Positions 1 through 46,428 of a DNA stretch of 64,000 nt are shown in pieces (positions within the stretch are counted from its first letter, which is position 1; each line of letters starts with the position of its first letter). Under the pieces are notes generated by a model. It saw nothing but the letters and a program-made list of their open reading frames with translations. It searched no databases and had not been told where the DNA came from. The stretch spans positions 3,410,001 through 3,474,000 of the forward strand of contig NZ_CP013417.1 of NCBI RefSeq assembly GCF_001524445.2, read 5' to 3'. Position numbers and translations under genes: made by a program. The stretch comes from Burkholderia savannae. GTDB taxonomy: Bacteria; Pseudomonadota; Gammaproteobacteria; Burkholderiales; Burkholderiaceae.

Positions 1-2814
1 GCGACGGGCGCGGGCTGGCAGCCGCCGCCCGACGGCACCGGCGCGACCACCTCGATCTACGACGCGCTCGGCCGCCTCGTGCAGCTCACGCGGCCCGACG
101 GGCTCGTCGTGACGAGCCGCCGCGAAGGCGACACGGTGATCACGAGCGAGACATGGCCGGGCGCCGCGGCGGCCGACGTCGAGCGGCAGGTGTACGACGC
201 GGCGGGCCAGCTCGTGTCGGTCGCGCGCAACGCGGGCGATCACTGGGTCGAGCAGCGCTACGGCTATGCGCCGTCGGGCAAGGTCAGCGACGTGACGCTG
301 CCGGGCGGCGCGCACGTCGCGTTCACGCTCGACCTGCTCGGCCGCGTGTTCGCGCAGCAAAGCCCCGACACGGGCCGCACGGTGTTCTTCCTCGACGCAT
401 CGGACAACCAGCGCGCGCGCACGAACGCGGCGGGCCAGATCGTGCGCACCGACGTCGACGCGATGAACCGCGTGACGAACGTGTATCACGACGCGGAGGC
501 GACGCCGCGCGTGCGCTACGAATATGCCGACGCGAGCGGCGCGCCGCCCGCCGACGGCATTACCGCGAATCGCTTCACGCGCGTATGGCGCATCACCGAC
601 GAGATCGGCGCGGTCGTCTTCGAATACGACGAAGCGGGACGCAAGACGACCACCGCGCGCACCGTCGCCGCCACCGGGCAAAGCTTCGTCACGCGGCGCG
701 CGTACGACGCGCTCGGTCGCCTCGCGAATGCGACGCTGCCCGCGACCGCGCCGGGCGGCGCGGCCCGTACGATCGACTACGGCTATGCGGCCGACGGGCG
801 GCTCGTGAGCGCATCGGGCGTCGTGAAGGACGCGGCCTACGATTTGTTCGGACGCCTGACGTCGATCGATTACGCGAACGGCGCGTCGACGCTGATCGAC
901 TACGCGGCGAACGCGGGCGGCATCGCGCGCGTGCGCGTGCTCGACGCATCGCGCAACGTACTGCGCGACACGACGCTCACGCGCCGCGACGGCCTCGCCA
1001 CGACGCTCGCGAGCGCGAACGCCGCGGACGACAGCGTCGACTTCGGCTACGACGCGCTGCGCCGCCTGACGAGCGCGAACTACCGGCAAGGCGCGACGGC
1101 CGCGGACACGCACGGCTGGACCTTCGACGACGCGTTCAACGCGACGGCCGCCACGGACGCGGGCGCGCTGACGTACGAGCCGGGCACGCACCGGCTCGCG
1201 TCGATCGGCGGCGCGGCGATCGCGTTCGACGCCGCCGGCCGGATGACGACGGGCCGCTTCGGCGCGGCGGCGTTCGACGCGGCCGATCATCTGAGCGGCG
1301 TGACGCTGCCCGACGCGACGCAGATCGCGCACACCTACGACTACCAGGGCCGCCGCGCGCGCTCGACGAAGAACGGCGCGCAAACCTACTTCAGCCCGAC
1401 CGAGGACATCGAATTCCAGGGCGACGCGGCGATCGTATGGATCACGTTCGGCAGGCAGCGGATCGCGGCCGACATCGGCGGCGCGCTGACCTTCGTGCAT
1501 CCGAACGCGCTCGGCGTGATGGATCTCGTCACCGATTCGAACGGCGCGTACGGCACGCGCGTGCGGCAAACGCCGTTCGGTTACGCGCGCCCGGCCGACG
1601 GCGCGGCGCTTGCGGGCGGCGTCGCCGTGGTGGCGCTCGCGCTCGGCGCGACGGACGCGACGGGCCTCGTCTGCCACGGCCTGCGGTGGTACGACCCGCG
1701 CGCAGGCCAGTTCATCAGCCCCGACCCCGTCGTGACGAGCGTGTACACGGTCGGCTCGTGGAACCCGTACGCGTACTGCCTCGGCAATCCGATCCTGCTC
1801 GCGGACCCGAACGGCTGCAGCTTCCTGAGCGTGCTCGAGATCATCGGCGTCGCGATCCTCGCGGCGGCTTGCGTCGTCGGCGCGATTTTCACGGGCGGCG
1901 CGACGCTCGTCGCGCTCGGCGTGCTGTCCGCGAACATCGGCGGGTGGCTCCTCGCGGGCGTCGCGCTCGGCAGCCTGGGCGGCGCGATCGCGGGCGAGCT
2001 CGCCGCGCAGAAGGCGGGCGGCAATCTGTGGGCGGGCGCGTTCCTCGGCGCGTTCCTGGGCGGCGCGACGTCGCTGATCGGCGGCGCGCTCGGCGGCGCG
2101 GCCGCGGCCGGCATCGACACGCTGATCGGCGGCACGAAAACATTCCTGTCGTTCGTCGCGGCGGGCGCGATCCAGGGCACGCTCGCGGGCGCGGGCACGG
2201 GGCTCGCGATCGGCTATGCGGGCGGCAAGGGCAACGCCGAATCGATGCTGATCGCGATGGCGAAGGGCGCCGCATGGGGCGCGGTGCTCGGCACGCTGCT
2301 CGGCGCGGGCATCGGCGCGATCGCGGGCACGGGCATCAGCGGCGCGGCGAAGCCGGACAACTTCCTGAACATCGGCGCGTTCGGCCAGAAGTTCGCGGAT
2401 TTCACGAGCACGTCGACGGCGATCAACTCGGCCGACAACGCAGCGGGCGTGACCGAATCGCTCGCGCAACTGTCGATGCCGAACGGCTTCAACGCGAGCA
2501 ACATGCTCGGCCTGCTGCCGAACCTCGTGACGACGAACGAACAGGCGGCGGGCTGGTTCTCGATTCCGATCGGATGGCTCGGGCCGGGCGTGCTGAACGA
2601 CGCGGGATTCGCGGGGCTCGTCGATACGTCGATGGCGCTCGACCAGGCGGGGCTCAGCTACGCGCACCAGATCTCGCTGCTGCTCGGCGCCGCGCCCTAC
2701 TTCATCGACTACGCGGCGACGATGGCGCAAATCGTCGACGCGAACGGCGTGAACAGCTTCGAGACGGCGTTCAACAAGGCGTTCGGATCGGGGAATCCGA
2801 GCAACACGGGGTGA
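1..2814 (+). CDS. Rhs/YD-repeat protein, 3' part (5' end outside window)
   Basis: The frame is open from base 1, so only the C-terminal 937 residues or so are present. YD-repeat motifs (YDALGRL, YDAAGQL, FDLLGR-like) recur through the first ~550 residues, followed by the Rhs core end motif YDPRAGQFISPDPV and then DPNG. In this family the conserved core forms a shell and the variable region after it is the effector. Here that region is about 340 residues: a very Gly/Ala-rich stretch with several hydrophobic helices, then a polar tail that I do not recognise as a known toxin. It could be a membrane-acting effector, but that is inference. The TGA stop is at 2812-2814. Secretion route and partner (VgrG, PAAR) cannot be judged because the N-terminus is missing. 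Confidence 0.9.
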   Translation, partial: ATGAGWQPPPDGTGATTSIYDALGRLVQLTRPDGLVVTSRREGDTVITSETWPGAAAADVERQVYDAAGQLVSVARNAGDHWVEQRYGYAPSGKVSDVTLPGGAHVAFTLDLLGRVFAQQSPDTGRTVFFLDASDNQRARTNAAGQIVRTDVDAMNRVTNVYHDAEATPRVRYEYADASGAPPADGITANRFTRVWRITDEIGAVVFEYDEAGRKTTTARTVAATGQSFVTRRAYDALGRLANATLPATAPGGAARTIDYGYAADGRLVSASGVVKDAAYDLFGRLTSIDYANGASTLIDYAANAGGIARVRVLDASRNVLRDTTLTRRDGLATTLASANAADDSVDFGYDALRRLTSANYRQGATAADTHGWTFDDAFNATAATDAGALTYEPGTHRLASIGGAAIAFDAAGRMTTGRFGAAAFDAADHLSGVTLPDATQIAHTYDYQGRRARSTKNGAQTYFSPTEDIEFQGDAAIVWITFGRQRIAADIGGALTFVHPNALGVMDLVTDSNGAYGTRVRQTPFGYARPADGAALAGGVAVVALALGATDATGLVCHGLRWYDPRAGQFISPDPVVTSVYTVGSWNPYAYCLGNPILLADPNGCSFLSVLEIIGVAILAAACVVGAIFTGGATLVALGVLSANIGGWLLAGVALGSLGGAIAGELAAQKAGGNLWAGAFLGAFLGGATSLIGGALGGAAAAGIDTLIGGTKTFLSFVAAGAIQGTLAGAGTGLAIGYAGGKGNAESMLIAMAKGAAWGAVLGTLLGAGIGAIAGTGISGAAKPDNFLNIGAFGQKFADFTSTSTAINSADNAAGVTESLAQLSMPNGFNASNMLGLLPNLVTTNEQAAGWFSIPIGWLGPGVLNDAGFAGLVDTSMALDQAGLSYAHQISLLLGAAPYFIDYAATMAQIVDANGVNSFETAFNKAFGSGNPSNTG

Positions 2815-3236
2815 CGCAAACGAACCCGGATCGCGGTTCGCCGTGCTCGCAAACGGAACGACATGGGAAACGAGACAGAAAACGAAATGGGAAGCGCTCG
2901 ACGCCGCACGCATCGCACGCATCGCCGGGCGTCGAATGTCGACGATCGCTTGCCGCCGCGCAATGCTCGCCCGCGGCGAGCTCGCTCACGCGGAACATCG
3001 CCGAGATCCGTTCGCTCTCCTGAGCGCGCGTCGCCTCGCGCGCTCGACGCGTCGGCGCTTTTGAACCCGCGCGCACGCGACCGAGCGTCGACGCAAGCGC
3101 CCGCCGCTCCGATCGGCGCGTGTGGCTTCGCGCGAGGCCGCACGCGCTCGATTTCGAGCGTGCCCCGACAGGCGCGACCGGCCGACTGAACCGGACGCCG
3201 GCGCCGAAGCGAGATGCCGCGAGGCTGGAGAGTGCG
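2815..3236. other. Gene-free stretch after the Rhs gene
   Basis: About 420 bases between the Rhs stop and the next credible start. Several short open frames exist on both strands, but they overlap each other, are arginine-rich GC artefacts and have no good ribosome site. I see no clear terminator or promoter. Confidence 0.5.
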
Positions 3237-4645: not shown

Positions 4646-4772
4646 CGACACACCGGTGCGCATGCCGACCGACGGCCGAACAGGCGCGAATCTCCGCATG
4701 GATCAACTTCCGCTATCCCCTCCGGCCGTCCCACAGCGCTAAACTAAAGGCGCCAAAGCCGGAGAACACACC

Positions 4773-5090
4773 ATGATTCCTCCCGACCCTGAAAGCACCT
4801 TCCGCGGCTTGCCGTTGACGCCCGAGCAGAACGCTGAAGTAAGGCATTACATCAAGATTCGAACTCAGCGCGGCTTACCGTGGGACACGCCTGAACTGCA
4901 GGCGATGATTCGCGACATGATGCTGCCGCCGGAGGAAGATGCCGGCGCGGCGGATTTCCTGTCGGACGAGACGCGAGCGGTCGCCGAACGCGCGATGTCG
5001 TCGGTGGAAGACGAGATGGACCCCATCGAGGCAAACGAGGAATGGCGAGCGGCCATGGAAGCGGAAAACATGAAGGGCCTGCGTCGGTGA
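4773..5090 (+). CDS. Small acidic hypothetical protein
   Basis: 105 residues, soluble and acidic in its second half, with no signal peptide or recognisable motif. The ATG has a good ribosome site (CCGGAGAACACACC). It lies about 130 bases after the membrane-protein gene on the same strand. The lack of a competing frame with a better start and the clean start signal make it a likely real gene. Function unknown. Confidence 0.6.
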   Translation: MIPPDPESTFRGLPLTPEQNAEVRHYIKIRTQRGLPWDTPELQAMIRDMMLPPEEDAGAADFLSDETRAVAERAMSSVEDEMDPIEANEEWRAAMEAENMKGLRR

Positions 5091-5255
5091 CGCCCCTTCC
5101 CGCGCCACGAAGCCGCCCCGCACGACGCCCCGCCACGCGAGACGACGTATGTCGATCGTCGGCCCCGCCGCGCGTGAGGCGCGCGACGCCGATCGCGTCG
5201 GCGCGGCGAAACGCGCGGCGCGCTCATTGAACATCGAACGCACGGGAGAACGACC

Positions 5256-5531
5256 ATGCGACTGATCGAACCGAACGAACACAAGGACTATCTCGCGGCG
5301 CTGCACGGCCGCGGCCTGTCGGGAAGCGATTTCGCGCTTCGCGAAACGGACACGACGGACCCGAAGAGCGACGAAAACTTCGGCCAGATGGGCTTCGTCA
5401 CGATCACCCGACGCTCGACGCACGTGACGAAGGAATATCCGCTCGGCGACGCGAGCGACTGGCTCCAGCACTTCAAGAACGATTTAGAAACGGGCGCGTT
5501 CGACGAAGCGAACGACAGCCAGCACACCTGA
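5256..5531 (+). CDS. Small hypothetical protein
   Basis: 91 residues, soluble, acidic, with a compact predicted fold and no recognised family. The start has a clear ribosome site (GGGAGAACGACC) 5-8 bases before the ATG. It is separated from the previous small gene by about 165 bases and followed by a long gene-free stretch. Function unknown. Confidence 0.6.
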   Translation: MRLIEPNEHKDYLAALHGRGLSGSDFALRETDTTDPKSDENFGQMGFVTITRRSTHVTKEYPLGDASDWLQHFKNDLETGAFDEANDSQHT

Positions 5532-6184
5532 GCGTGACCGGCACGCGATGCGTTGCCGCCCGAACGCGTACGCCGAAATCGTCCGCCGCTGCATGCGCGA
5601 AGCCGGCATCTCGACGGCTCCGACATCATCCGAACCGGAAACGTCCCGCATGCCGTCGGCGGGCCGCCATCGATCGCGCGACGACCGCAGCAAACTCATT
5701 CGCGAACGTTCAATGCAGACGGGCAACCTTGGCCATCGCCGACACTTGAATCGAACATGCGCTCGGCGCGCCTGTGCCCGGCGCGGCGCCGCGCGCACCG
5801 CGTAACTCGGCGACATCCTGTTGAACGTTCGGCCGTCGCCGGTTACGCGTCGCACAAATCCGAGGATCTCTCGTTCCCGATGCGCGTCGATCAACGAGAT
5901 CAACGCAATAAACGCGACAATCTCGACAAACGCGGAATATTCCGAATGCCGCATGCGAGCACGCGCGGCGCCAGCCGGACCACCCGTCCTCACTAACCGG
6001 CCGATCGTTTCACGCCGCGTATCGCGCAAGGCCGCACGCGTGCGATCCATGCACGCCGCCGAAGCGCCGTCGAACCGATTTCACACGGCACGCCGCCCTC
6101 CGAACATCGCGGTTTTCGTGCAACTCGCCATTACCGTGAATTAGGGCCATGTCTTTCGATTCAATTCAGGCGCCGAATCAATAA

Positions 6185-6378: not shown

Positions 6379-6693
6379 ATGAGTATCGTCGCTGGACCTT
6401 TCCCGTATGAAAACATCACGCGCCGCACGACCGACGAGGAACGTGCTCAAATCGAACGCATCGATCTGAACGACGGCGACATCGAACGTCTCGTCGATCT
6501 GTTCCGCGACGGCCTGCGCGAAACGGCGCAATTTCACAGCGCCGCCGTGCAAAACAACTTCCAGATCCGCGCCGAGGTTTCCGTCCGCCTGTCCCGGCCG
6601 ATCCAGAGCGAGGACGGCGCCAGGGTCGAGGAAATCGTCAGTCGCAGCACCATCGACGAAACGATCGAATCGAAAAAGGTCTTCAAGAACTGA
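6379..6693 (+). CDS. Candidate RiPP precursor peptide (BMA_0021/BMA_0022-like TOMM family?)
   Basis: 104 residues from the ATG at 6379, chosen because GAGGAG lies 8-13 bases before it; an upstream ATG at 6340 would give 117 residues but has no ribosome site. The peptide is charged, helix-prone in its first 60 residues (DLNDGDIERLVDLFRDGL), has no cysteine, and ends in a Ser/Thr/Lys-rich tail (ESKKVFKN). It stands first in a YcaO/TfuA operon, the usual place of a precursor. I recall a Burkholderia family of about 110-residue putative TOMM precursors (BMA_0021/BMA_0022); membership is suspected from size and context, not verified. Without cysteines, azole formation is limited to Ser/Thr, so thioamidation or hydroxylation of the backbone or side chains fits better. 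It could instead be an accessory protein with the true core elsewhere. Confidence 0.65.
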   Translation: MSIVAGPFPYENITRRTTDEERAQIERIDLNDGDIERLVDLFRDGLRETAQFHSAAVQNNFQIRAEVSVRLSRPIQSEDGARVEEIVSRSTIDETIESKKVFKN

Positions 6694-6730
6694 TCCTTTC
6701 GTCTCGACGAATCACCCCTAAATGATTCAA

Positions 6731-6765
6731 GTCGCCCCGCAGTGCAGCATTTACTGTCGGGCGAT
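6731..6765 (+). promoter_or_regulatory. Stem-loop between precursor and ycaO
   Basis: Thirteen paired positions with one mismatch and two G-U pairs: GTCGCCC-CGCAGT pairs with ACTG-TCGGGCGAT around a 9-base loop. There is no strong T-run, so it may be a leaky terminator or an RNA-stabilising hairpin. Either would give more precursor than enzyme transcript, as is common in RiPP operons. Confidence 0.5.
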
Positions 6766-6850
6766 TATCGATTCATTTATCGCCTCAATGATTTCCATCT
6801 TTATTGCGCATGACTGACATGCCACATTTGCTTTTCATACAGGCAGTGTG

Positions 6851-8077
6851 ATGCAAGAACATCCGGTCTATTTCGAGACATCCTCATCTTCGAATCAGTC
6901 GTTCATGCCGCCGTCGTCACATGACCTGGCCGAAACGCTGGCATTGACGCAACCCTATCTCGAACGCTGCGGAATCACGCGGGTGACGGATATCACGCGG
7001 ATGGACGTCATCGGCGTGCCGGTGTATTCGGCCATTCGCCCGCTGTCGCTGACGCTCGCCGTCAATGCCGGCAAAGGCATGACGCGCGAAGCGGCCAGGA
7101 TCAGCGCGATCATGGAGGCGATCGAGTATTGGCATGCGGAGCGGATACCGGCCGAGACCGCGCATTTTGCGTCCTCGGCCGCCATGCAGGCCGAGCACGG
7201 CATTTCGATACTCGACTTTTGCCCGGAACTGGGCGCGACGTTGAAGCGCACGCAACCCATCGGCTGGGTGCCGCTCGAAAACCTCTCGGGCGCGGGCAAC
7301 GTATTCGTGCCGATGGAGTGCGTGTTCATGCCGTGCCCGCCCCCGTACGGAGCGAACTTCCTGCGGGCCACCAGTTGCGGGATGGCGTGCGGAACGACGA
7401 TCGAACAAGCAACCTTGCACGCGATCTGCGAGGTGGTCGAACGGCATCAGCAGTCGTTCGACACCGTCTCGCCCCGCTCCCGCGCGACGCCGCTGCGCCT
7501 GCTGGCCGGGGACGCGGCCGGGCTTGCGCAGCGGATCGACGCGGCGGGACTGACGCTCAAGATGCGCTCCCGGTACGACATGGGCCTCTTTTTCGTCGAC
7601 GCCGTCGTGGCGGCCACGGAGGGCGCCAGCTTGTCGTACGTGAACGGCGGGACGGCGTGCCACTCGGATTTCCAGTCGGCCGCTCGCGCCGCCCTGCTGG
7701 AAGCGGTTCAAAGCCGCCTGACGGTGATCCACGGCGGCCGCGACGATCTCGACGAACGTCTCGCGCCATCGGAAAGCAAGACGTACGACGCCAGCAAAGC
7801 CGAGATCGAACACATCCTCGACGCGTATTCGAGCGGCATCGAGGTCACGGAACAGGACATCCGCATGCGCTCGCCCGAGCACGCCGTCACGCGGCTGATC
7901 GACGAGATCCGCTCGGCCGGCTTTGCGCGGGTCCTGCGCCATCGTTTCACGCAGCCGGACGATCCTCTCCAGGTGGTGCGCGTCGTCATTCCGCAAATGG
8001 AGCACTTCTCCCGCGCCACCGGCAAGGTGGGGCGGCGCCTGCTGGATTACATTCGCTCGACGGGAGGGCGGCCGTGA
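6851..8077 (+). CDS. YcaO family ATP-dependent backbone-modifying enzyme
   Basis: About 408 residues (a GTG three bases earlier, at 6848, is also possible). YcaO enzymes use ATP to activate peptide-bond oxygens. The ATP/Mg-binding signature elements are visible: MEAIEYWHAE near residue 95, the ICEVVERH block near 197, and LLEAVQSR near 283. The C-terminus (STGGRP) lacks the proline-rich PxPxP tail of azoline-forming YcaO proteins, and there is no E1-like or ocin-ThiF partner gene. Together with the adjoining TfuA gene, this points to the thioamide-forming class. The stop overlaps the next start (GTGA), so ycaO and tfuA are coupled. The substrate is presumably the upstream peptide. Function at family level is secure; thioamidation is inference from context. 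Confidence 0.93.
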   Translation: MQEHPVYFETSSSSNQSFMPPSSHDLAETLALTQPYLERCGITRVTDITRMDVIGVPVYSAIRPLSLTLAVNAGKGMTREAARISAIMEAIEYWHAERIPAETAHFASSAAMQAEHGISILDFCPELGATLKRTQPIGWVPLENLSGAGNVFVPMECVFMPCPPPYGANFLRATSCGMACGTTIEQATLHAICEVVERHQQSFDTVSPRSRATPLRLLAGDAAGLAQRIDAAGLTLKMRSRYDMGLFFVDAVVAATEGASLSYVNGGTACHSDFQSAARAALLEAVQSRLTVIHGGRDDLDERLAPSESKTYDASKAEIEHILDAYSSGIEVTEQDIRMRSPEHAVTRLIDEIRSAGFARVLRHRFTQPDDPLQVVRVVIPQMEHFSRATGKVGRRLLDYIRSTGGRP

Positions 8078-8724
8078 TCTGCCACGTGTTCGTCGGCCCC
8101 ACCGCGTTCGGCTTGCCAAATCGGCTCCTGGTCCGCCCGGATCTGGTGATTCACGGACCGGCCGCGCGCGGCGACATCCGCGCGTTGGGCGGCACGCTTT
8201 CGCGCGGCGCGGCCGTCGCATTGATCGACGGCCGCTTTGGAGACGTGCCGTCCGTCGCCCATTGGGAGATTCTGGAAATGCTCGACGCCGGCGTGCGCGT
8301 CTTCGGGCTGTCCTCGATGGGAGCCATACGCGCCGCGGAATTGCAACGGTACGGCATGACGCCGTATGGCTCGGTAGCGCAGCGCTTCGTCGACGATCCC
8401 GATCTTCCGGATGACGAAGTGATGATGCTTCACTCGCCTCGCCCTCCGTACGCGCCGATTTCGGAGCCGCTGGTTCATTTGCGCGAAGGTGCGCGCCACC
8501 TGGTCGCCCGCGAAATTTTGTCCGATGAACAGGCAGCGCGAATCATCGGCGATCTGCGCGAACGATGGTTCGGCGAGCGGACCTGGGAGACGCTGATCGA
8601 TTCGGCCGCGCAACAGGGCGTCGACCGAAGCGCGCTCCTTCGCGCGCTCGGCGATCCGCAGCGCTACCGGGTCAAGTCGCGGGACCTGGAGAACTTCCTC
8701 CATGACGAGCCCTGGGCAAGTTGA
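8074..8724 (+). CDS. TfuA-like protein (thioamidation partner of YcaO)
   Basis: 216 residues from GTG 8074, which overlaps the ycaO stop. The hallmark block is clear: VFVGPT at the start, then HWEILEMLDAGVRVFGLSSM followed by GAIRAAEL and GMTPYGSV. TfuA proteins accompany thioamide-forming YcaO enzymes; from memory, published work on an archaeal pair showed TfuA releasing sulfide from a thiocarboxylated sulfur-carrier protein for the YcaO reaction. Here the cluster also encodes such a carrier (15340-15612) and an E1-like activator (13967-15139), which fits that mechanism. The C-terminal part (from about residue 130) is less conserved. Confidence 0.92.
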   Translation: MICHVFVGPTAFGLPNRLLVRPDLVIHGPAARGDIRALGGTLSRGAAVALIDGRFGDVPSVAHWEILEMLDAGVRVFGLSSMGAIRAAELQRYGMTPYGSVAQRFVDDPDLPDDEVMMLHSPRPPYAPISEPLVHLREGARHLVAREILSDEQAARIIGDLRERWFGERTWETLIDSAAQQGVDRSALLRALGDPQRYRVKSRDLENFLHDEPWAS

Positions 8725-8725
8725 C

Positions 8726-9493
8726 ATGAAAAAAATCGACGAGATTTTTCACGGACTCCCTTTCCTCGACGAGCCGTTCAAATCGGACCTGCTGCTGACG
8801 CTGATCGGCCGGGTGCGAAAAATCCTGGGCGACGACATCGTCGGTCCCGCCATCGACGCCGACTGGCTCGATCCCGATCAAGCCCTGAAGCTTCGAGGCG
8901 CCGCCGGCATCGGTTGCGATCTCCCGTTGCTCCCGCTCTCCGCCCTGCAATTGCAGCAGGTGCGATCGGCGCGCGCGAGCATCGTCGAAGCGGCGCCCGA
9001 ATGGCAGCGGCTGATCCTGTTCCCGGTGAAATACCACCGGCTCGACAGCAGCGACGTGATCGGGTGCTCGTGCTACGCGACACCGCAACGCGTGTTCCTC
9101 TCCGACGCCGCATTCGCCACGCCACGAGAACTCTGCGAGCAGATCATCCACGAGCATTGCCATAACTGGATGTACTTCCTCGAGGAACTGATGCCGTTTC
9201 ATCGAATCGACTACCGGGAAGTCTTCGTCCTGCCTTCCGGAACCGCCAATCGCAATCCGACGGAAGTCATCGGCGCGGCGCACGTCGCCGCGACGCTCGC
9301 GCATTGGTACGCGAGGCAGGCCGATGCGCCGTCGCAACGGCGCGTCCGCGACCTGCTCACTTATCTGGACGGCTGCGTCGGCATTCTGCGCGCGCTGCCG
9401 CACGATTCATTGCTGCCGGCCGGCGCCGAAATCGCGTCGCTCCTTGCCCGATCCAATGAACGATTCCCCAGGAGAGGCGATCTTGTTTCGTGA
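8726..9493 (+). CDS. HExxH-motif protein, putative peptide-modifying (beta-hydroxylase-type) enzyme
   Basis: 255 residues from ATG 8726; an in-frame ATG at 8702 would overlap tfuA and add 8 residues. The only strong motif is IIHEHCHNWMYFLEE, an HExxH metal site at residues 142-146. Proteins with HExxH in RiPP clusters were first taken for proteases; several are now described as 2-oxoglutarate-dependent peptide beta-hydroxylases. That role fits the cluster, which also has a second oxygenase-like gene, but a metallopeptidase removing the leader cannot be excluded. No signal peptide or membrane segment. Its end overlaps the next gene by up to 38 bases. Confidence 0.75.
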   Translation: MKKIDEIFHGLPFLDEPFKSDLLLTLIGRVRKILGDDIVGPAIDADWLDPDQALKLRGAAGIGCDLPLLPLSALQLQQVRSARASIVEAAPEWQRLILFPVKYHRLDSSDVIGCSCYATPQRVFLSDAAFATPRELCEQIIHEHCHNWMYFLEELMPFHRIDYREVFVLPSGTANRNPTEVIGAAHVAATLAHWYARQADAPSQRRVRDLLTYLDGCVGILRALPHDSLLPAGAEIASLLARSNERFPRRGDLVS

Positions 9494-10091
9494 AATTGCT
9501 CCGTCACTGTGGCAGTGCTGGCCCGTGTTCATTTACCGGCAGGTGCTCGACGACGCGGCCGAGATCAACGCGCGGCTCGCCGACGCGATCTCGAAGCGCG
9601 CGTCGACCGAGCCGAGCGCGAAGGCCAGCAACGCCGACGCATGGCAATCCGCGGCGGACTTCTTCGGTCACGACGACGCCGACAGGACGTTCCTCGTCGA
9701 GCGCATCACCACCGCGATGCGCCAGATGAACCGGCTGTCCGGCATCACCACCGACGACTTCGACGTCATCCTGGAAGGGTGGAGCGTCATCAATCGCGCG
9801 GGGCATCACCACAACCATCACATCCACCACAGCTCGGTCTGGTCCGGCGTGTATTACGTTCGCACCCCGGCCGGCTGCGCATCCGCCGCGCGAGACGGCG
9901 CGATCGAATTCATCGACCCTCGCCATGCCGCGCCCGTGACCGCGCGCAGCATCCGGACGATCCGCCCGGTCGGCGGATCGCTGCTGCTGTTCCCGAGCTG
10001 GCTCGAGCACTGGGTGCATCCTCACTACGAGGCCGGCGAGCGCATCTGCGTGCCGTTCAACATCTACCTGATGCCGAGGATGAGCCGATGA
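9456..10091 (+). CDS. Putative 2-oxoglutarate/Fe(II)-dependent oxygenase
   Basis: 211 residues from ATG 9456. A TTG at 9483 has a better ribosome site (AGGAGAGG) and would give 202 residues, so the start is uncertain. The family pattern is visible: a His-rich stretch at residues 117-125 leading into SSVWSGVYYVR, then LLLFPSWLEHWVHPH (about 176-190), then GERICVPFNIYLMP. In the TIGR02466-type oxygenases the His residues of the first block, the His after FPSWLxH, and the later Arg bind iron and 2-oxoglutarate. It probably hydroxylates the RiPP. It overlaps the HExxH gene before it and the next gene (ATGA at 10088). Confidence 0.8.
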   Translation: MNDSPGEAILFREIAPSLWQCWPVFIYRQVLDDAAEINARLADAISKRASTEPSAKASNADAWQSAADFFGHDDADRTFLVERITTAMRQMNRLSGITTDDFDVILEGWSVINRAGHHHNHHIHHSSVWSGVYYVRTPAGCASAARDGAIEFIDPRHAAPVTARSIRTIRPVGGSLLLFPSWLEHWVHPHYEAGERICVPFNIYLMPRMSR

Positions 10092-10702
10092 TCGACCTGA
10101 TACTCGAATGGCCCACCTACATCCTGTCGGGAACGATGCCGCCGGATGCGCTGGCCGCCGCCCAAAAGCGCGCCGCCGATCCGGCCGGCATCCTGCGTCT
10201 CGAGGACGCGATCGGCCCGATCGTCGCGGACGCGCCGCACGCGCGGGCGCTCGGCGACGCCGAACTCCGCGAGCCGCGGATCGAGACCTGGTACGCAGGA
10301 CACCTCGAAGCGCTGTGCGACGACATGCCCGACGCGACGCACATCGTCATCGTCGTGCTCGACGTGTCGAGCGACGAGGCCGCGCCACCGGCGAATTATT
10401 CGGGCACCTTGATGATCCGCGACCCCCGCGCGGGCTGCGCCAGCGTCTTCGTTCCCGGCCTGCCGTATGGCCGGCCGTTCGAATTCGTCGCGCGGCCCGG
10501 CGCATACGTCTGCTACCCGGCATGGCTGCGCTGCGCGGTTCTCCCCGTCAACGCCGGTCACGAGATCCGCCTGTTGCGCGCCAAACTGGTCATGAAGCGG
10601 CCCGGCGCGCACGATCGGCCCGAGCACCGTCAACTCGATCTCGACGGGCGCCCGGACGTAAACGACATCGAACGCGCCGACCGTTCGCGCGCCTCGGCAT
10701 GA
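10088..10702 (+). CDS. Degenerate oxygenase-like protein (probable non-catalytic paralogue)
   Basis: 204 residues. By eye its second half aligns with the preceding oxygenase: NYSGTLMIRDPRAGCASVF matches the WSGVYYVR-region, PGAYVCYPAWLRCAVLPV matches the FPSWLEHWVHPH block, and GHEIRLLRAKLVMK matches GERICVPFNIYLM. The His residues of both metal-binding blocks are replaced (SSDEAAPPA before NYSG; RCAVLPV after the tryptophan), while the Arg of the last block is kept. It may be a partner or scaffold subunit of the neighbouring enzyme. It starts and ends in ATGA overlaps with its neighbours. The relationship is my reading, not a computed alignment. Confidence 0.65.
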   Translation: MIDLILEWPTYILSGTMPPDALAAAQKRAADPAGILRLEDAIGPIVADAPHARALGDAELREPRIETWYAGHLEALCDDMPDATHIVIVVLDVSSDEAAPPANYSGTLMIRDPRAGCASVFVPGLPYGRPFEFVARPGAYVCYPAWLRCAVLPVNAGHEIRLLRAKLVMKRPGAHDRPEHRQLDLDGRPDVNDIERADRSRASA

Positions 10703-12039
10703 ACGCCAATCGAATCCTGAAGATCCTGAAGATCGAATCGATCTCGGTCAACGTGACGCGGCTCCAGATCGGCCTCGTCTGCGTCGGGCTCGCCAGCGAC
10801 GCGTTCCGTTACGCGTTCGCATGGTGGGTGCTGAAGATCAACGGCTCGGTGGTCGAATTCGGCAGCCTGCTCGCCGCGATGACCTTCGCCCAGACCACGT
10901 CGACGCTCGGCGTGGGCGCCCTCGGCGACATGTGGAATCCGATGAAGGTGCTGCGATCGGCCGTGTGCCTTCAGGGCGCGACGATTGCGATCCTCGCGGC
11001 GTGGGCCGGATTCGGTCCGTATCATTTCCCGCTCGCGATGCTCTTGTCGATCGTCCTGTCGCTGTTCGTCGGCGCGATCGAACCGTTGACCAACGTTGCG
11101 ATCGCGTCCATCGCGCCGGCGGGGCAGGTCACGCGAGTCATGGCGCAACGGGGCGCGCTCGCAAGCGGAACGAAGCTGCTGGGCCCGCTCATGGCGGGCG
11201 CAATGGTGTCGGTCTTCGGCGCGGCCGGAACCCTGCTCGCCTCGGCGGCATTCGCCGGCGCCTCCTGCTTGATCTTCGTTCCGCTTCGAATCGACGACGA
11301 CAATCGCGCCGAGCAGCCCGGCGCGATGTCGTTTCTCTCGTCATGGGCGCGCAAGACCGCCGCCGGCCTCCGCACCTTCTATCAAGTGAAGGTCGACTTC
11401 TATTTTTGCGTCATGACGTGCATGGCGAACTTCGCGCTCCCCGCGTTTTTTCTGGTCGCGCTTCCTTACCTGGTCATTCAGGTGCTCAACTTCCCCGCCA
11501 GCATGCTCGGCATCTTCGACGGCATTTTTTGCGCCGGCATGTTCGTCGGAGGCATGCGCGTGGTGATGTGGCTCAACCGGGCCGTCGGCAAGCAGCATGC
11601 CGTGTTTCTGTCGATGGCCGCGCTCGCCGCGATGATCTTTTCGTTCACCGTCACGCGTCAGCCCGTCGTCATGAGCGGCGCATTGTTCATCGGCGGGATG
11701 TTCATGATGACGATCTTCGTCAATATCGGCGGACTGCGCGCGGTGGCCACGCCGAAGCACTATCGCACCCGCATGTTCGCCACCGCATCGTTTCTCGTCT
11801 CTCTTTCGATCACGCCCGGAATCGCTTTCGTCACGTTCGCCACGCAACGCGCGGGAATCGACGCGGCGCTCGGATCGATCGCGGGCATCTGCATCGTGTC
11901 GGCGGTCGCGATCTACTTCATTCCGAACTCGCGCAAGGTTCTCGAGATGACCGAGCGCGACGCCGAAAACGCGTATCAGCGGCTATATCCCGCTGCGTTC
12001 CTCAAGCCTGACGCCGGCGGCCGCGAGATGGCCGGCTGA
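10699..12039 (+). CDS. MFS transporter, probable RiPP exporter or self-protection
   Basis: 446 residues from ATG 10699, overlapping the previous stop. About 10-12 hydrophobic segments are spread over the protein (for example LQIGLVCVGLASDAF near the start, and ALPAFFLVALPYLVIQVL in the middle). The pattern is of the drug/peptide efflux MFS type (MFS_3/enterobactin-exporter-like), though the usual loop 2-3 motif is weak (GALGDMWNPMKVLR). Position inside the cluster suggests export of the modified peptide. The C-terminus is cytosolic and charged. Confidence 0.85.
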   Translation: MNANRILKILKIESISVNVTRLQIGLVCVGLASDAFRYAFAWWVLKINGSVVEFGSLLAAMTFAQTTSTLGVGALGDMWNPMKVLRSAVCLQGATIAILAAWAGFGPYHFPLAMLLSIVLSLFVGAIEPLTNVAIASIAPAGQVTRVMAQRGALASGTKLLGPLMAGAMVSVFGAAGTLLASAAFAGASCLIFVPLRIDDDNRAEQPGAMSFLSSWARKTAAGLRTFYQVKVDFYFCVMTCMANFALPAFFLVALPYLVIQVLNFPASMLGIFDGIFCAGMFVGGMRVVMWLNRAVGKQHAVFLSMAALAAMIFSFTVTRQPVVMSGALFIGGMFMMTIFVNIGGLRAVATPKHYRTRMFATASFLVSLSITPGIAFVTFATQRAGIDAALGSIAGICIVSAVAIYFIPNSRKVLEMTERDAENAYQRLYPAAFLKPDAGGREMAG

Positions 12040-12088
12040 CGGATCAGCCTGGCAGGCAATCCGGTTCGCCACTCCATCGACCCATACC

Positions 12089-13087
12089 ATGAGCCCGAAC
12101 TCCCTGGAAATCATCTTTGCGCAAAGCATCCTGCCTCATGCATTCTTCGCCGCCTTGCGCGTCGGCTTGTATTCGGCGCTCACGCGCGCGCCGGCGCCGG
12201 CGGAGGCGATCGCGCGGAAGCTCGGGCTATCGCGGCGCGCGGCCAGCGTGCTGCTCGACTCGCAGGTCCTGATCGGGCTCGTCAAACGGGATTCGGACAC
12301 GCGCTATAGCGCGAGCGAAGAAGCCGCGACGTTCCTGCATCCGGACGGGACGGGCTATTGCGCGGCCATCTACGACAAGTGGCTCCAAGCGCTGCGCAAC
12401 CTCGATTCGGCATTGCGGGACGACGCGCCCGCGATCGACGTCACGTCTGCGGCCTTTCAGCCCGAGTGGGTTCATTATGCGAGAAAGAGCCTGGTGTCCT
12501 GGCCGGACGAAGCGAGACTCGCGATGCAGGATTGGAGCGACCTCATTGCTCGAGGCCAGGTGCGTCCCGACAGCCGCGTCGCCTACTTCGCGAGCGGCGC
12601 GGGGGTATTCGGCATGGCGCTCGCGCAATTTTCCGAGCGCTGCCGCGTCGTGCTGCTCGATCGGCCCGACGTCCTGAGCGTCGCGCGGCGCGTCGCGTCG
12701 CTGATGCGCGTCGGCGAGCGCGTGCAATGCCATCCGTTCGAATTGCGGCGAGCAGCCCGCGAGGACGATCGCCGTGCGCCGCTGCCCGCGGTCGACATGG
12801 CGATATTCCGCGAAACGCTCCACTATCTTCCGCCCGACGAAGTCCGGATGCTGCTCGAGCGGGCCCGGAACACGTTCGAGCACGTCGACAAGATGCTCGT
12901 CATCAATCGATTCCTGAACGACGCGCGCACCGGGCCCCGCCCCTGCTTCATCGACAACGCGTACATGGCCGCCACCTCGCCGCACTGGGAAAGCTACACC
13001 GAGTCCGAAATCGGATCGATCTTCTCGGATGCCGGCTATCCGGTACGCACGCAGATCAACGAACGAACCTGGCTCTTCTCTCGCTAG
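12089..13087 (+). CDS. O-methyltransferase family 2-type SAM methyltransferase
   Basis: 332 residues. The N-terminal ~90 residues form the dimerisation/winged-helix domain (ALTRAPAPAEAIARKLGLSR, LLDSQVLIGLV), followed by a Rossmann domain. SAM motif I is altered: YFASGAGVFGMAL stands where DVGGGxG is usual; then VVLLDRPDVL (motif II), and RETLHYLPPDEVRMLL as in family members. It probably methylates an oxygen or a carboxyl group of the RiPP, perhaps one introduced by the hydroxylases. It lies 49 bases after the transporter on the same strand with no terminator between. Confidence 0.85.
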   Translation: MSPNSLEIIFAQSILPHAFFAALRVGLYSALTRAPAPAEAIARKLGLSRRAASVLLDSQVLIGLVKRDSDTRYSASEEAATFLHPDGTGYCAAIYDKWLQALRNLDSALRDDAPAIDVTSAAFQPEWVHYARKSLVSWPDEARLAMQDWSDLIARGQVRPDSRVAYFASGAGVFGMALAQFSERCRVVLLDRPDVLSVARRVASLMRVGERVQCHPFELRRAAREDDRRAPLPAVDMAIFRETLHYLPPDEVRMLLERARNTFEHVDKMLVINRFLNDARTGPRPCFIDNAYMAATSPHWESYTESEIGSIFSDAGYPVRTQINERTWLFSR

Positions 13088-13122
13088 TCCCCATCGATCC
13101 ACTCACTGCTTAGGCTGCCACC

Positions 13123-13800
13123 ATGAACGCATCCAACGTCTACAGCAATTTCTACAAAGTCGAGCGAACGGGCGGAGATCATCTGAGCGACGGCGGAGGG
13201 CCGTTCGGCTTCGACATCACCGTGGCGCTCCAGGCCGATTACCTCATTCGCTTCCATCGATGCGACGCCATACTGGAAACCGGCAGCTTCCGCGGCGACA
13301 CAACGGCCTATCTCAGCCACGCTTACCCGGACCTGCCCGTCTTGACCTGCGACATCGATCCCGACAACGCGAAGTTCGCGCAAGTCCGGTTGCGCGCGCA
13401 GGCAAACGTCACCGCCACACATGCGGATTCCCGCGAATTTCTCCGCCGCCATCTGCCGAAATATCAGCGCCCCTTCGTCTATCTCGACGCGCACTGGTAC
13501 GACGACTGGCCGCTCGGGCAAGAGCTGGAGCTGATCGATCGCGGCGTGATCTGCATTGACGACTTCGATATCGGGCACCCGCGATTCGCATTCGATCACT
13601 ACGACGACGTGGTGTGCGGGCCCGACATATTGAAGCCGCATCGCAGCCGAATCCCGTTTTTCTATACGAACAACCCGCTCGGGAAATACCCGTTTCCCTG
13701 CCTGCAGATCGGCCGCCGAAGCGGCAAGGCGTACATGGAAATCGGCATGGGGGATTCGGCGTTGTCGCAAAGCGACTGGTTTCTGAAGCGGGAAAACTAG
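13123..13800 (+). CDS. Class I SAM methyltransferase-like protein
   Basis: 225 residues. LETGSFRGDTTAYLS near residue 50 is a SAM motif I variant, followed by LTCDIDPDNAKFAQV (acidic loop) and HADSREFLRRHLP. FVYLDAHWYDDWPLGQEL near residue 120 resembles the metal-dependent methyltransferase/cephalosporin hydroxylase-like group. The role is uncertain: a second methylation of the RiPP is the simplest reading. It is 35 bases after the previous gene and runs with it. Confidence 0.7.
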   Translation: MNASNVYSNFYKVERTGGDHLSDGGGPFGFDITVALQADYLIRFHRCDAILETGSFRGDTTAYLSHAYPDLPVLTCDIDPDNAKFAQVRLRAQANVTATHADSREFLRRHLPKYQRPFVYLDAHWYDDWPLGQELELIDRGVICIDDFDIGHPRFAFDHYDDVVCGPDILKPHRSRIPFFYTNNPLGKYPFPCLQIGRRSGKAYMEIGMGDSALSQSDWFLKREN

Positions 13801-13966
13801 GACGCCGCCATCGACATCGTGATCGCCGATCCCATGCGCTCGTCGAACCTCCGCATCCGCGGTTCTCGGCAGCTCGCCCGTCCGGAGCGATCGCGGGCGC
13901 GCGGGCAGCGAATCGGCTCGCTCATCGCGCCCCCCACCGCCTTCAATCGCAATCGGACCACGCCCC

Positions 13967-15139
13967 ATGAAACTGCCCCCGCTCGTCACGAGACGCCCGC
14001 CGTTATCCCGCGAGGAATTGTCCCGCTACAGCCGGCACATCCTGCTTCCCGAGATCGGCCTGCAAGGTCAGCAGCGCCTCAAGGGAAGCCGGGTGCTCGT
14101 CGTGGGCGCGGGCGGGCTCGGCTCGCCCGTGCTGCTCTATCTCGCGGCGGCGGGTGTCGGTACGCTCGGCATCGTCGATTTCGATCGCGTGGATATCTCC
14201 AATTTGCAGCGGCAAGTCATCCACCGAATGTCGACGGTCGGCCGTTTGAAGACCGACAGCGCACGCGACGCGATTCTCGATCTGAATCCGCATGTCGACG
14301 TGCGCGCTCACGACGAACGGCTCGACAACGACAACGCCGTGCCGTTGTTCCGGCAATACGACATCGTCGTCGACGGCACCGACAATTTCGCGACCCGCTA
14401 CCTGGTCAACGACGCCTGCGTCCTGGCCGACAGGCCGTATGTCTGGGGATCGATCTATCGCTTCGAGGGGCAGGCGTCGGTGTTCTGGGAAGCGGCGCCG
14501 GGCGGCACCGGCGTCAATTACCGCGATCTGTATCCCGAGCCGCCGCCGCCGGAACTGGCGCCGTCGTGCTCGGAAGGCGGCGTGCTCGGCGTGCTGTGCG
14601 CATCGATCGCGTCGATCATGGCGACCGAAACCGTCAAGCTCATCACGGGTGCGGGTGATTCGCTGCTCGGCCGGCTTGCGGTCTACGACGCGCTGGAGAT
14701 GCGCTGCCGGTTCCTGCCGCTGCGGCGTGCGCCCGGGCGCCAGCCGATCACCGCGCTCGCCGATTATCGGCACTTCTGCAATCCCGCCGTGCGGCAGCCG
14801 CCGAACGGGGAGACGATCGCGCCCGGCGTCGACGTTGCGGAACTCAAGCGCTTGCTGGACGCCGGCGCGCCGCTCGAGCTCATCGACGTGCGCGAGCCGA
14901 ACGAGTGGGATCTCGTTCGCATTCCGGGCGCGCGGCTCGTCCCGAAACAGCAGATGCTCGCCGGCGGCATGACGACGCTCGACAAATCTCGGCGAACCGT
15001 CATCTACTGCAAAGGCGGCGCCCGCTCGCAAGAAGTCGTGCAGGCGATGCGGCGCGCCGGTTTCACGGACGTCAGCAATCTCGACGGAGGCGTGCTCGCC
15101 TGGGTCCGCCTGATCGATCCGTCGCTGCCGTCATATTGA
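13967..15139 (+). CDS. moeZ: E1-like adenylyltransferase/sulfurtransferase (MoeB-rhodanese fusion, MoeZ-type)
   Basis: 390 residues. The N-terminal ThiF/MoeB domain has VVGAGGLGSPVLLYLAAAGV (ATP site), DNFATRYLVND, and PSCSEGGVLGVL (catalytic region). The C-terminal rhodanese domain (from ~285) has the active loop YCKGGARS with Cys348. Such fusions adenylate the C-terminal Gly of a small sulfur carrier and load it with sulfur as a thiocarboxylate. The likely partner is encoded 200 bases downstream. It could serve general sulfur metabolism, but its position after the RiPP genes suggests it feeds YcaO/TfuA. A 166-base gap with no terminator separates it from the methyltransferase gene. Confidence 0.92.
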   Translation: MKLPPLVTRRPPLSREELSRYSRHILLPEIGLQGQQRLKGSRVLVVGAGGLGSPVLLYLAAAGVGTLGIVDFDRVDISNLQRQVIHRMSTVGRLKTDSARDAILDLNPHVDVRAHDERLDNDNAVPLFRQYDIVVDGTDNFATRYLVNDACVLADRPYVWGSIYRFEGQASVFWEAAPGGTGVNYRDLYPEPPPPELAPSCSEGGVLGVLCASIASIMATETVKLITGAGDSLLGRLAVYDALEMRCRFLPLRRAPGRQPITALADYRHFCNPAVRQPPNGETIAPGVDVAELKRLLDAGAPLELIDVREPNEWDLVRIPGARLVPKQQMLAGGMTTLDKSRRTVIYCKGGARSQEVVQAMRRAGFTDVSNLDGGVLAWVRLIDPSLPSY

Positions 15140-15339
15140 GCGCGTCGGGCGTCGACGCAACCGTTGCGATGCAGACGAATCCGGCGCGCGACGCCGACGC
15201 ATTGCGGCCGGGGCGCGCGCGAAGGCACATGCAGAGCGTTCGCGCGGCCGAAACAACTGCGGAAGGCATCGGTCGGCAACCTCGCCGTGTTGCCGACGCC
15301 CCCGCTTCCCGCCCAACCGATTCCCTTTTCTTGCCCGCC

Positions 15340-15612
15340 ATGACTATTACGATTCAGATTCCGACCATCATGCGCTCGCTGACGCGCGATCAGAAATACG
15401 TCGAAGCGCACGGCCAGACCGTCATCGAAGCCATCGCCCACCTCGAGCGGAACTACCCGGGCCTACAACGACGACTGATGCAGGGCGATCAACTGCATCG
15501 CTTCGTCAACATCTATGTCAACGACGACGACATCCGCTTCAACGGCGGCCTTTCTGCTCGTCTGAGGGACGGGGATACGATCACCATCCTGCCGGCCGTG
15601 GCCGGCGGCTAG
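15340..15612 (+). CDS. ThiS/MoaD/CysO-type sulfur carrier protein
   Basis: 90 residues from ATG 15340; a longer upstream frame is non-conserved in appearance. The ubiquitin-like fold pattern is clear (VNIYVNDDDIRFNGGL, then LRDGDTITILPAVAGG), and the protein ends exactly in Gly-Gly, the residue that is adenylated and thiocarboxylated. It resembles CysO/MoaD-like carriers that use MoeZ-type activators. No JAMM protease or cysteine synthase lies beside it, which argues against the mycobacterial-style cysteine route and for delivery to TfuA. The 200 bases before it hold no gene. A hairpin terminator follows. Confidence 0.9.
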   Translation: MTITIQIPTIMRSLTRDQKYVEAHGQTVIEAIAHLERNYPGLQRRLMQGDQLHRFVNIYVNDDDIRFNGGLSARLRDGDTITILPAVAGG

Positions 15613-46275: not shown

Positions 46276-46428
46276 CGGCTCGCCGGCACGGACTCGCGAC
46301 GAACCGCACAAACACGTACGAACACGTACGAACACGAGCGAAACCGATGGCGGCGACGGTACGGCGGCGGACAGCCCGCCGCCGCCTTTCCGCGCCGGCG
46401 CGCTTCGCCCGTCAATCGCCGCGGCGCA

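What the first reader, a model, noticed from the sequence alone, without database searches (positions are those of the whole stretch)
6379..15612. RiPP cluster with YcaO, TfuA and its own sulfur-carrier system
A precursor-like gene, YcaO, TfuA, a HExxH protein, an oxygenase plus degenerate copy, an exporter and two methyltransferases run on one strand, mostly in ATGA/GTGA overlaps. They are followed by an E1-rhodanese protein and a Gly-Gly sulfur carrier. YcaO+TfuA is the thioamide-forming pair, and TfuA is reported (from memory) to free sulfide from a thiocarboxylated carrier. A cluster that supplies this carrier itself would be a self-contained thioamidation system. The product with hydroxylation and methylation is not known to me.
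Basis: partly seen in the sequence, partly recalled or inferred. Interest (0 to 1): 0.9.

Follow-up and report, generated by a model that had tools for sequence, protein, structure and literature searches.

The report
Thioamide peptide cluster, borrowed sulfur supply
A Burkholderia gene cluster looks built to make a small modified peptide carrying sulfur in its backbone, and it brings its own sulfur-delivery pair, whose nearest readable relatives sit in a different (siderophore-like) pathway; clusters of this general kind are already known, but this version, with its paired oxygenase and apparently swapped-in sulfur carrier, is a new variant.

Summary
In detail: precursor-like gene, YcaO, TfuA, HExxH protein, oxygenase plus degenerate partner, MFS exporter, two methyltransferases, E1-rhodanese and Gly-Gly carrier lie on one strand at 6379-15612. 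The HExxH protein falls in the aKG-HExxH peptide-hydroxylase family. The sulfur link is supported: all 3 of 65 Burkholderia species genomes with a strong YcaO of this type carry E1-rhodanese and a bare-GG carrier in the same cluster, and YcaO-TfuA-HExxH-carrier-E1-MFS recurs in Pseudomonas, Glaciimonas and Vibrio. That layout is already in print for Pseudomonas (PMC8719888), so 'self-contained thioamidation' is not new in kind. Unusual here: (1) the core (precursor, YcaO, TfuA, HExxH, oxygenase, pseudo-oxygenase, methyltransferase) is shared with one myxobacterial lineage that has no E1/carrier nearby; (2) this E1 and carrier are of another lineage, whose readable kin have a capped carrier and a JAMM protease; here both are absent, and the genome has no Prok-JAB match; (3) a close relative lost the segment, E1/carrier included. 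Best reading: a thioamidated, hydroxylated, methylated RiPP with a recruited sulfur relay. No product is shown. New variant of a known kind.

The parts
6379..6693 (+). precursor-like peptide, 104 aa; leader-like segment about residues 27-52, then H-S-A-A-V-Q-N-N (53-60), then a conserved C-terminal extension ending KKVFKN
   Evidence: 7 proteins at E<=0.1, itself included; myxobacterial relative beside YcaO; weak similarity to precursors of other YcaO-TfuA-HExxH clusters; low-confidence model: helix 32-56 then hairpin
6851..8077 (+). YcaO, McrA-thioamidation-like
   Evidence: PF02624 189 bits; TIGR03266 177 bits (below its equivalog cut-off 365); PDB 6PE3 (MJ1094) E 9.9e-16
8074..8724 (+). TfuA
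   Evidence: PF07812 108 bits; PDB 6XP8 TfuA E 1.5e-17; SMGA motif at residue 81
8726..9493 (+). aKG-HExxH-type peptide hydroxylase family protein
   Evidence: TIGR04267 48.5 bits over cut-off 40; ChlH 8S5F weak, E 0.066
9456..10091 (+). Fe(II)/2OG oxygenase, TIGR02466 / PF13759, His motifs kept
   Evidence: 43% identical to the myxobacterial copy
10088..10702 (+). pseudo-oxygenase partner, distal His lost (LRCAVLP against LEHWVHP)
   Evidence: no family; aligned with 9456-10091 and with the myxobacterial partner, which also lacks it
10699..12039 (+). MFS exporter
   Evidence: PF07690 79 bits; relative in the G010 cluster, 29%
12089..13087 (+). O-methyltransferase (Methyltransf_2 with dimerisation domain)
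13123..13800 (+). methyltransferase-like, part of the core shared with myxobacteria
   Evidence: 47% over 221 aa to L134; Methyltransf_24 below cut-off
13967..15139 (+). E1 (ThiF) fused to rhodanese; GAGGLG at 47, APSC at 198, CKGGARS at 348
   Evidence: tree
15140..15339 (+). gap where the nearest readable kin carry a JAMM (Prok-JAB) gene; none here
15340..15612 (+). sulfur carrier, MoaD/ThiS/CysO-like, 90 aa, bare C-terminal GG
   Evidence: TIGR01687 52 bits; PDB 4N6E_B and 3DWG_C

Best explanation
The cluster makes and exports a thioamide-containing RiPP. YcaO activates a backbone amide of the 104-aa precursor with ATP; the rhodanese half of the E1 protein supplies persulfide sulfur and its ThiF half adenylates the bare Gly-Gly end of the carrier, giving a thiocarboxylate; TfuA releases sulfide from it to YcaO. 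The aKG-HExxH protein and the 2OG oxygenase (working with its inactive partner) hydroxylate, or in the HExxH case possibly cut, the peptide; the methyltransferases cap it; the MFS pump exports it. The E1/carrier pair was recruited from a MoeZ/thiocarboxylate-pathway lineage and lost, or never had, the carrier cap and its JAMM protease. Shown: gene content, family membership, linkage, lineage, joint absence of cap and JAMM, selection on the pair, and loss of the segment in a relative. Inferred: every catalytic step, the core residues (I favour the H-x-A-A-V-Q-N-N stretch) and the product.
For: Family. Linkage: strong YcaO (E<=1e-40) in 3 of 65 genus genomes (G000, G010, G059); all 3 carry E1-rhodanese and a bare-GG carrier in the cluster, while matches covering both ThiF and rhodanese are in 9 of 65 genomes (read by me from the capped list); by my own arithmetic C(9,3)/C(65,3)=0.002. 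Elsewhere: of 33 YcaO loci (TfuA found at 32), E1 in 8, carrier in 7, both in 6 (several contigs are short, so lower bounds; L073 is the G059 locus again); order YcaO-TfuA-HExxH-carrier-E1-MFS in 6 loci (L047, L061, L063, L066, L070, L077). Coupling: 4 of 4 close E1/carrier kin (G006, G027, B. multivorans, G189) have carriers running past GG (RY, RS, RS, a 16-residue tail) and a JAMM gene between E1 and carrier (Prok-JAB by Pfam in G027 and B. multivorans; by similarity in G006 and G189), while the window and 9 of 9 YcaO-linked carriers (8 loci) end in bare GG; no Prok-JAB match in the whole genome, control rings in 8 of 14. dN/dS 0.205-0.217 (E1) and 0.19-0.24 (carrier) against G006/G027. In G021 the flanks lie either side of a 130-base scrap (94.6%) of window 10054-10183, so the cluster was once there and is gone, the right-hand loss ending just past the carrier gene.
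Against: No chemistry is shown. E1 and carrier are spaced off from the coupled genes (166 and 200 bases). The myxobacterial sister cluster has no E1/carrier in the stretches read (17.9 kb in L065, 30 kb in G596), so the core can work without a clustered supply, and 25 of 33 loci show no E1. An E1 of ThiF/MoeB type exists somewhere in 17 of 17 genomes looked at, so supply in trans is possible. Deletion in G021 can remove neighbours whatever their function. The context of the nearest E1 relatives (P0129-P0131, 85-88%, one from Ralstonia syzygii) could not be read. Pairwise dN/dS also covers time spent in another context. YcaO and TfuA score below the equivalog cut-offs of the McrA models, and of 8 HExxH proteins of kin clusters only 2 pass the TIGR04267 cut-off.
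Confidence: 0.7

Rival explanations
1. The E1 and carrier are a stranded remnant of a thioquinolobactin-like thiocarboxylate siderophore cluster that happens to lie next to the RiPP genes; the RiPP takes sulfur from housekeeping carriers.
For: Nearest readable kin of both genes (79% and 70%; G006, G027) have a JAMM gene between them and sit in loci like the B. multivorans one, whose proteins are tryptophan dioxygenase, FAD monooxygenase, alpha/beta hydrolase, aminotransferase and AMP-ligase by Pfam; decayed remnants occur in G017 and G058; the two genes are spaced off; the myxobacterial sister lacks them.
Against: Of the G006/G027 locus proteins searched, only E1, carrier and a distant aminotransferase (29-31%, at 45286-46296) match anywhere in the 64-kb window at E<=1e-5; both genes are intact, keep active-site motifs and are under purifying selection; cap and JAMM are absent together, as in the YcaO-linked carriers; the linkage recurs in two other Burkholderia clusters.
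Confidence: 0.17
2. The pair is a CysO/MoeZ-like general sulfur-assimilation module for cysteine or other metabolites, unrelated to the peptide.
For: Closest solved carriers are 4N6E_B (ThiS/MoaD family protein) and 3DWG_C (cfp10A; that this is CysO is recalled); 7996 proteins pass E 1e-80 with the E1, many of the named ones called MoeB or MoeZ (best 120 listed).
Against: No Mec+-type JAMM match in the genome, no CysM-like gene among the cluster's families, carrier rare in the genus (4 of 65).
Confidence: 0.08
3. The 104-aa protein is not a RiPP precursor but a small partner protein, and the modified substrate is elsewhere.
For: Conserved along most of its length, including the C-terminal end; longer than kin precursors (49-65 aa, 95 aa in the two-repeat cyanobacterial one). 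The window's own copy alone is not significant against the kin-precursor profile: 150 of 5000 shuffles reach it and it only ties for first among 317 window frames; the profile-profile probability is 13%.
Against: First gene of the operon in front of YcaO, conserved beside YcaO in a myxobacterium, and its family shares a leader-like segment with other precursors: best member 15.4 bits against at most 10.0 in 5000 shuffles of itself; profile score 20.25 against at most 17.58 in 200 column shuffles.
Confidence: 0.2

Closest known systems
Pseudomonas 'YcaO cluster' (PMC8719888, passage read)
   Same: precursor, YcaO, TfuA, 'unknown domain' protein (the HExxH position in our Pseudomonas loci), ubiquitin-like protein, E1/ThiF-like protein, MFS, methyltransferase
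   Different: short precursor (50-51 aa in L061, L063, L066), carrier and E1 inside the tight gene run and of another lineage, no 2OG oxygenase pair found there
YcaO-TfuA thioamidated RiPPs: thioviridamide group, thiovarsolins, std cluster (PMC6511847, PMC8120280, PMC13174530; passages read)
   Same: YcaO next to TfuA, precursor; in std also an MFS permease and Asn thioamidation followed by hydroxylation of a neighbouring residue
   Different: other precursors; std uses an MNIO and a carbamoyltransferase; no sulfur-relay gene in the std gene list of the passage
aKG-HEXXH enzymes ChlBH, BpmH, PflC, PosC (PMC12636437; abstract, introduction and one results section read)
   Same: same enzyme family; RiPP context
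   Different: partners described there are rSAM or MNIO enzymes, not YcaO-TfuA; substrates differ
Thioquinolobactin / PDTC / thioplatensimycin sulfur-carrier cassette (PMC6006322, passages read)
   Same: E1-rhodanese and carrier of a related lineage
   Different: capped carrier plus JAMM protease there; bare GG and no JAMM here
Archaeal ycaO-tfuA loci with thiF, moaD, moeB, rhodanese genes nearby (PMC5589413, passages read)
   Same: sulfur-relay genes next to ycaO-tfuA
   Different: protein substrate McrA, no RiPP tailoring genes described in the passages

Membership tests
YcaO-TfuA thioamidated RiPP cluster | ycaO and tfuA adjacent | tested here: met
   GTGA overlap 8074-8077; PF02624 and PF07812 over cut-off
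YcaO-TfuA thioamidated RiPP cluster | precursor peptide gene in the cluster | tested here: inconclusive
   104-aa gene kept beside YcaO also in a myxobacterial lineage; core not identified
YcaO-TfuA thioamidated RiPP cluster | S-for-O exchange in the peptide | not testable with these tools
   needs mass spectrometry
aKG-HExxH peptide hydroxylase | TIGR04267 score over cut-off and HExxH motif | tested here: met
   48.5 over 40 bits; HEHCH at 142
aKG-HExxH peptide hydroxylase | 2OG-dependent hydroxylation | not testable with these tools
   needs an enzyme assay
Carrier-fed thioamidation system | E1 and GG carrier in the YcaO-TfuA cluster | tested here: met
   this locus, G010, and 6 of 33 loci with both genes (L061, L063, L066, L070, L073 = G059, L077)
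Carrier-fed thioamidation system | TfuA hydrolyses this carrier's thiocarboxylate | not testable with these tools
   reported for ThiS-type carriers in Liu 2021, which is not held; seen only as cited in PMC13063428
Thioquinolobactin-type cassette | JAMM protease with capped carrier | tested here: not met
   bare GG; no Prok-JAB match in the genome
Thioquinolobactin-type cassette | kynurenine-pathway genes nearby | tested here: not met
   no match to such proteins of the G006/G027 loci in the window beyond a distant aminotransferase
CysO/MoeZ/Mec+ cysteine route | Mec+-type JAMM hydrolase | tested here: not met
CysO/MoeZ/Mec+ cysteine route | CysM-type synthase using the carrier | not tested
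   no such family among the cluster's genes; the whole genome was not searched
Pseudomonas YcaO cluster of PMC8719888 | gene order YcaO-TfuA-HExxH-carrier-E1-MFS | tested here: not met
   oxygenase pair, MFS and methyltransferases lie between HExxH and E1-carrier, and E1 precedes the carrier

The most novel reading that the evidence does not exclude
The sulfur supply of YcaO-TfuA clusters is a swappable module: this RiPP family, whose myxobacterial branch runs without a clustered supply, captured an E1/carrier pair from a thiocarboxylate-metabolite lineage and freed it from protease control by losing cap and JAMM together, so that TfuA accepts carriers only 17-24% identical to the usual ones. 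The product would be a new RiPP class with a thioamidated and hydroxylated Asn-Asn motif made by an HExxH enzyme plus an oxygenase/pseudo-oxygenase pair.
Probability: 0.33. Interest if true: 0.75.

Novelty: new variant of a known kind. Interest (0 to 1): 0.55.

Why it matters
It gives a natural test of how thioamide-forming enzymes get their sulfur: related YcaO-TfuA clusters with no clustered carrier (a myxobacterial lineage), with the usual carrier (Pseudomonas, Glaciimonas, Vibrio, two Burkholderia clusters) and with a carrier of another lineage (here). It also points to a family of untested RiPPs with a recurring N-N motif and an aKG-HExxH enzyme, and to a conserved pseudo-oxygenase partner.

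Tried and rejected
HExxH protein as a leader protease: not preferred, because TIGR04267 (hydroxylase family) is over cut-off and SprT-like is below; but PMC12636437 reports oxidative cleavage, and proteolysis without leader, by such enzymes, so cutting is not excluded. E1/carrier as a core Burkholderia locus: rejected (carrier in 23 of 299 family genomes at E<=1e-6, most at 33-37% identity). The precursor alignment scan of genome contigs found no relative by tblastn, yet genome search later found one in the genome of L065 and one in G596, so that negative was a limit of the method. My carrier query missed the divergent carriers of G010 and G059, found only by reading frames. Structure models were weak: precursor mean pLDDT 57.7, degenerate copy 50.6; the fold search of the latter had no match at E<=0.001, 6 of its top 7 rows being 2OG oxygenases with TM 0.24-0.33 and unrelated chains further down, so the pseudo-oxygenase call rests on alignment, not on the fold. 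The oxygenase against its copy in the window gives only E 0.008 by BLASTP; the myxobacterial pair bridges it. The promoter scan gave nothing above chance. The species of the window was not obtained. YcaO relatives in the plasmid collection are all below 60% identity (119 records).


Full report
What is there. Eleven genes lie on the + strand at 6379-15612. Pfam and NCBIfam support YcaO (PF02624, 189 bits; best NCBIfam model the McrA-thioamidation YcaO, 177 bits but below its cut-off), TfuA (PF07812, 108 bits), an aKG-HExxH-type peptide hydroxylase (TIGR04267, 48.5 bits, cut-off 40), a TIGR02466/PF13759 2OG oxygenase, an MFS pump, an O-methyltransferase, a second methyltransferase-like protein (below cut-off), ThiF plus rhodanese in one protein, and a MoaD/SAMP-like carrier. 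Solved relatives agree: 6PE3 for YcaO, 6XP8 for TfuA, ChlH 8S5F weakly (E 0.066) for the HExxH protein, Uba4/MoeB/ThiF for the E1, 4N6E_B and 3DWG_C for the carrier. The genes from YcaO to MFS are translationally tight; the methyltransferases, E1 and carrier are spaced by 49, 35, 166 and 200 bases.

Is the sulfur pair part of the cluster? In the 65 held genomes of the genus a strong YcaO of this type occurs in 3 (5 more have only weak hits, E 1.6e-5 to 8.7e-4). All three carry an E1-rhodanese and a bare-GG carrier within the cluster: this one, G010 (small ORF, YcaO, TfuA, HExxH, carrier, E1, MFS, methyltransferase-like) and G059 (carrier, E1, YcaO, TfuA behind a TIGR04267 protein; the further neighbours I named by eye as PqqD-, rSAM- and MATE-like). 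Matches covering ThiF and rhodanese occur in 9 of 65 genomes, as I read the capped list. A scan of genome contigs with a YcaO alignment gave 33 loci; profiles built here found TfuA at 32, E1 at 8, carrier at 7 and HExxH at 8 of the 33. L073 is the G059 locus again. The order YcaO-TfuA-HExxH-carrier-E1-MFS stands in L047, L061, L063, L066, L070 and L077. So linkage recurs, but 25 of 33 loci show no E1 in the stretch held, some of them short contigs. In 17 genomes reached through such loci a ThiF/MoeB-type E1 match exists somewhere in all 17, so supply in trans is always possible.

Lineages. The YcaO tree places the window with P0002, P0003, P0005 and the Sandaracinaceae/G596 sequence (98/96), away from the other E1/carrier-bearing clusters. 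L065 and G596 have identical YcaO, so they count as one lineage. The E1 tree places the window's E1 with P0129-P0131 (100/100), near the E1s of G006, G027 and Burkholderia sp. MSMB1835 (94/88 for the seven, 99/93 with Rugamonas), inside a MoeZ-like clade (100/99) away from the YcaO-linked E1s of the other clusters (several long branches, so the order among the latter is unsure). The carrier is 67-71% identical to the carriers of G006, G027 and G189 and 17-24% to nine YcaO-linked ones from eight loci. The thioquinolobactin-like label rests on gene content: tryptophan dioxygenase, FAD monooxygenase, alpha/beta hydrolase, aminotransferase and AMP-ligase with methyltransferase by Pfam in B. multivorans, with look-alike frames in G006/G027. 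G189 shares the E1-JAMM-carrier trio and ligase-like genes but showed no dioxygenase match on its 16.7-kb contig. No product is known for any of them here.

Cap and JAMM. In G006, G027, G189 and B. multivorans a JAMM gene lies between E1 and carrier (Prok-JAB by Pfam in two, by similarity in the other two), and the carrier runs on past GG (RY, RS, a 16-residue tail, RS). PMC6006322 (passages read) states that capped carriers typically need such a protease, QbsD being the example. The window's carrier ends at GG, the 200-base gap holds no such gene, and the genome has no Prok-JAB match while the control search rings in 8 of 14 genomes. The nine YcaO-linked carriers also end in bare GG. The pair is under purifying selection: dN/dS 0.205-0.217 and 0.19-0.24. 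Whether the cap was lost here or earlier is not known, since P0129-P0131 could not be read in context.

The site. In G021, a close relative (ssb region 91% identical), window 4703-5879 is followed by a 130-base piece matching 10054-10183 at 94.6% and then by window 15635 onward. The cluster was therefore once there and was lost, and the right-hand loss ends just past the carrier stop codon at 15612. Of the other seven regions compared, G017 has the left flank, about 2.2 kb of other DNA and ssb; G042 and G038 share a short left piece; the remaining four share the ssb side only.

The core and its tailoring. Sandaracinaceae MAG L065 and genome G596 (L134) carry the precursor relative (opposite strand), a methyltransferase, the second-methyltransferase relative (47%), YcaO, TfuA, HExxH, the oxygenase (43%) and the degenerate partner, without E1/carrier by profile in 17.9 kb and 30 kb. 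The partner lacks the distal His in both lineages, which argues for a kept pseudo-oxygenase. Precursors upstream of YcaO in kin clusters share a helix-like segment followed by H-E-S-N-N (Pseudomonas, Vibrio, Hoeflea), H-Q-A-N-N (G010, Glaciimonas) or, twice, S-E-A-D-N-N/D-N (a cyanobacterial MAG). The window family has H-x-A/S-A-V-Q-N-N near the matching place, the myxobacterial copy reading AVQGC instead. The statistical support is modest: the best family member beats all 5000 shuffles of itself and the profile score beats all 200 column shuffles, but the profile probability is only 13%, its aligned part stops before the N-N, and the window's own sequence alone does not stand out (150 of 5000 shuffles reach it). 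I therefore offer the N-N stretch as the likely core, not as shown.

What is known. PMC8719888 (passage read) lists a Pseudomonas cluster of precursor, YcaO, TfuA, unknown, ubiquitin-like, E1/ThiF-like, MFS and methyltransferase. PMC6511847 reports ThiS-like proteins in actinobacterial TfuA clusters; PMC5589413 reports thiF, moaD, moeB and rhodanese genes near archaeal ycaO-tfuA; PMC13063428 says thioamide-forming YcaOs of organisms outside high-sulfide settings tend to use a thiocarboxylated ThiS-like carrier and the TfuA hydrolase (passages read). PMC8120280 mentions a B. thailandensis cluster with fused tfuA-ycaO and two rSAM proteins, a different design. The searches in the held open-access library listed no paper that, by its title, abstract start or the passages I read, describes this cluster, its oxygenase/pseudo-oxygenase pair or the capture of a thiocarboxylate-type carrier; most listed papers I did not open, and subscription papers are mostly not held.

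Verdict. The finding is real and the main interpretation sound, but the kind of system is known. The variant is new, as far as I could see, in its tailoring pair, precursor and sulfur-pair lineage. Interest 0.55.

Noticed in passing
L115 (G021) 2768-3040, matching window 5879, 10054-10183, 15635: Deletion scar with a 130-base scrap of the oxygenase/pseudo-oxygenase junction: evidence that the cluster was present and lost in a close relative.
   Followed up: yes
L064 6442-6729: Cyanobacterial MAG precursor with two tandem repeats ending SEADNNN and SEADNDN in front of YcaO-TfuA-HExxH.
   Followed up: partly
L072 9528-9803, 15577-15846 and 9103-9339: Undibacterium terreum YcaO-TfuA locus with two different bare-GG carriers and a small ORF with a repeated EQTAMG motif.
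   Followed up: no
L134 10652-11749: JmjC_2 domain protein (PF08007) next to the myxobacterial precursor, same strand.
   Followed up: no
L125 1916-14125 (B. multivorans): Thioquinolobactin-like locus (AMP-ligase/methyltransferase, aminotransferase, E1, JAMM, carrier, tryptophan dioxygenase, FAD monooxygenase, hydrolase) in Burkholderia, with a capped carrier.
   Followed up: partly
window 79-2811: RHS-repeat protein upstream of the cluster, suggesting a variable region.
   Followed up: no
G017 C3:1294233-1294718 and G058 C3:70900-71262: Broken remnants of E1 (G017) and of E1 and carrier (G058) genes close to the G006/G027 type.
   Followed up: partly
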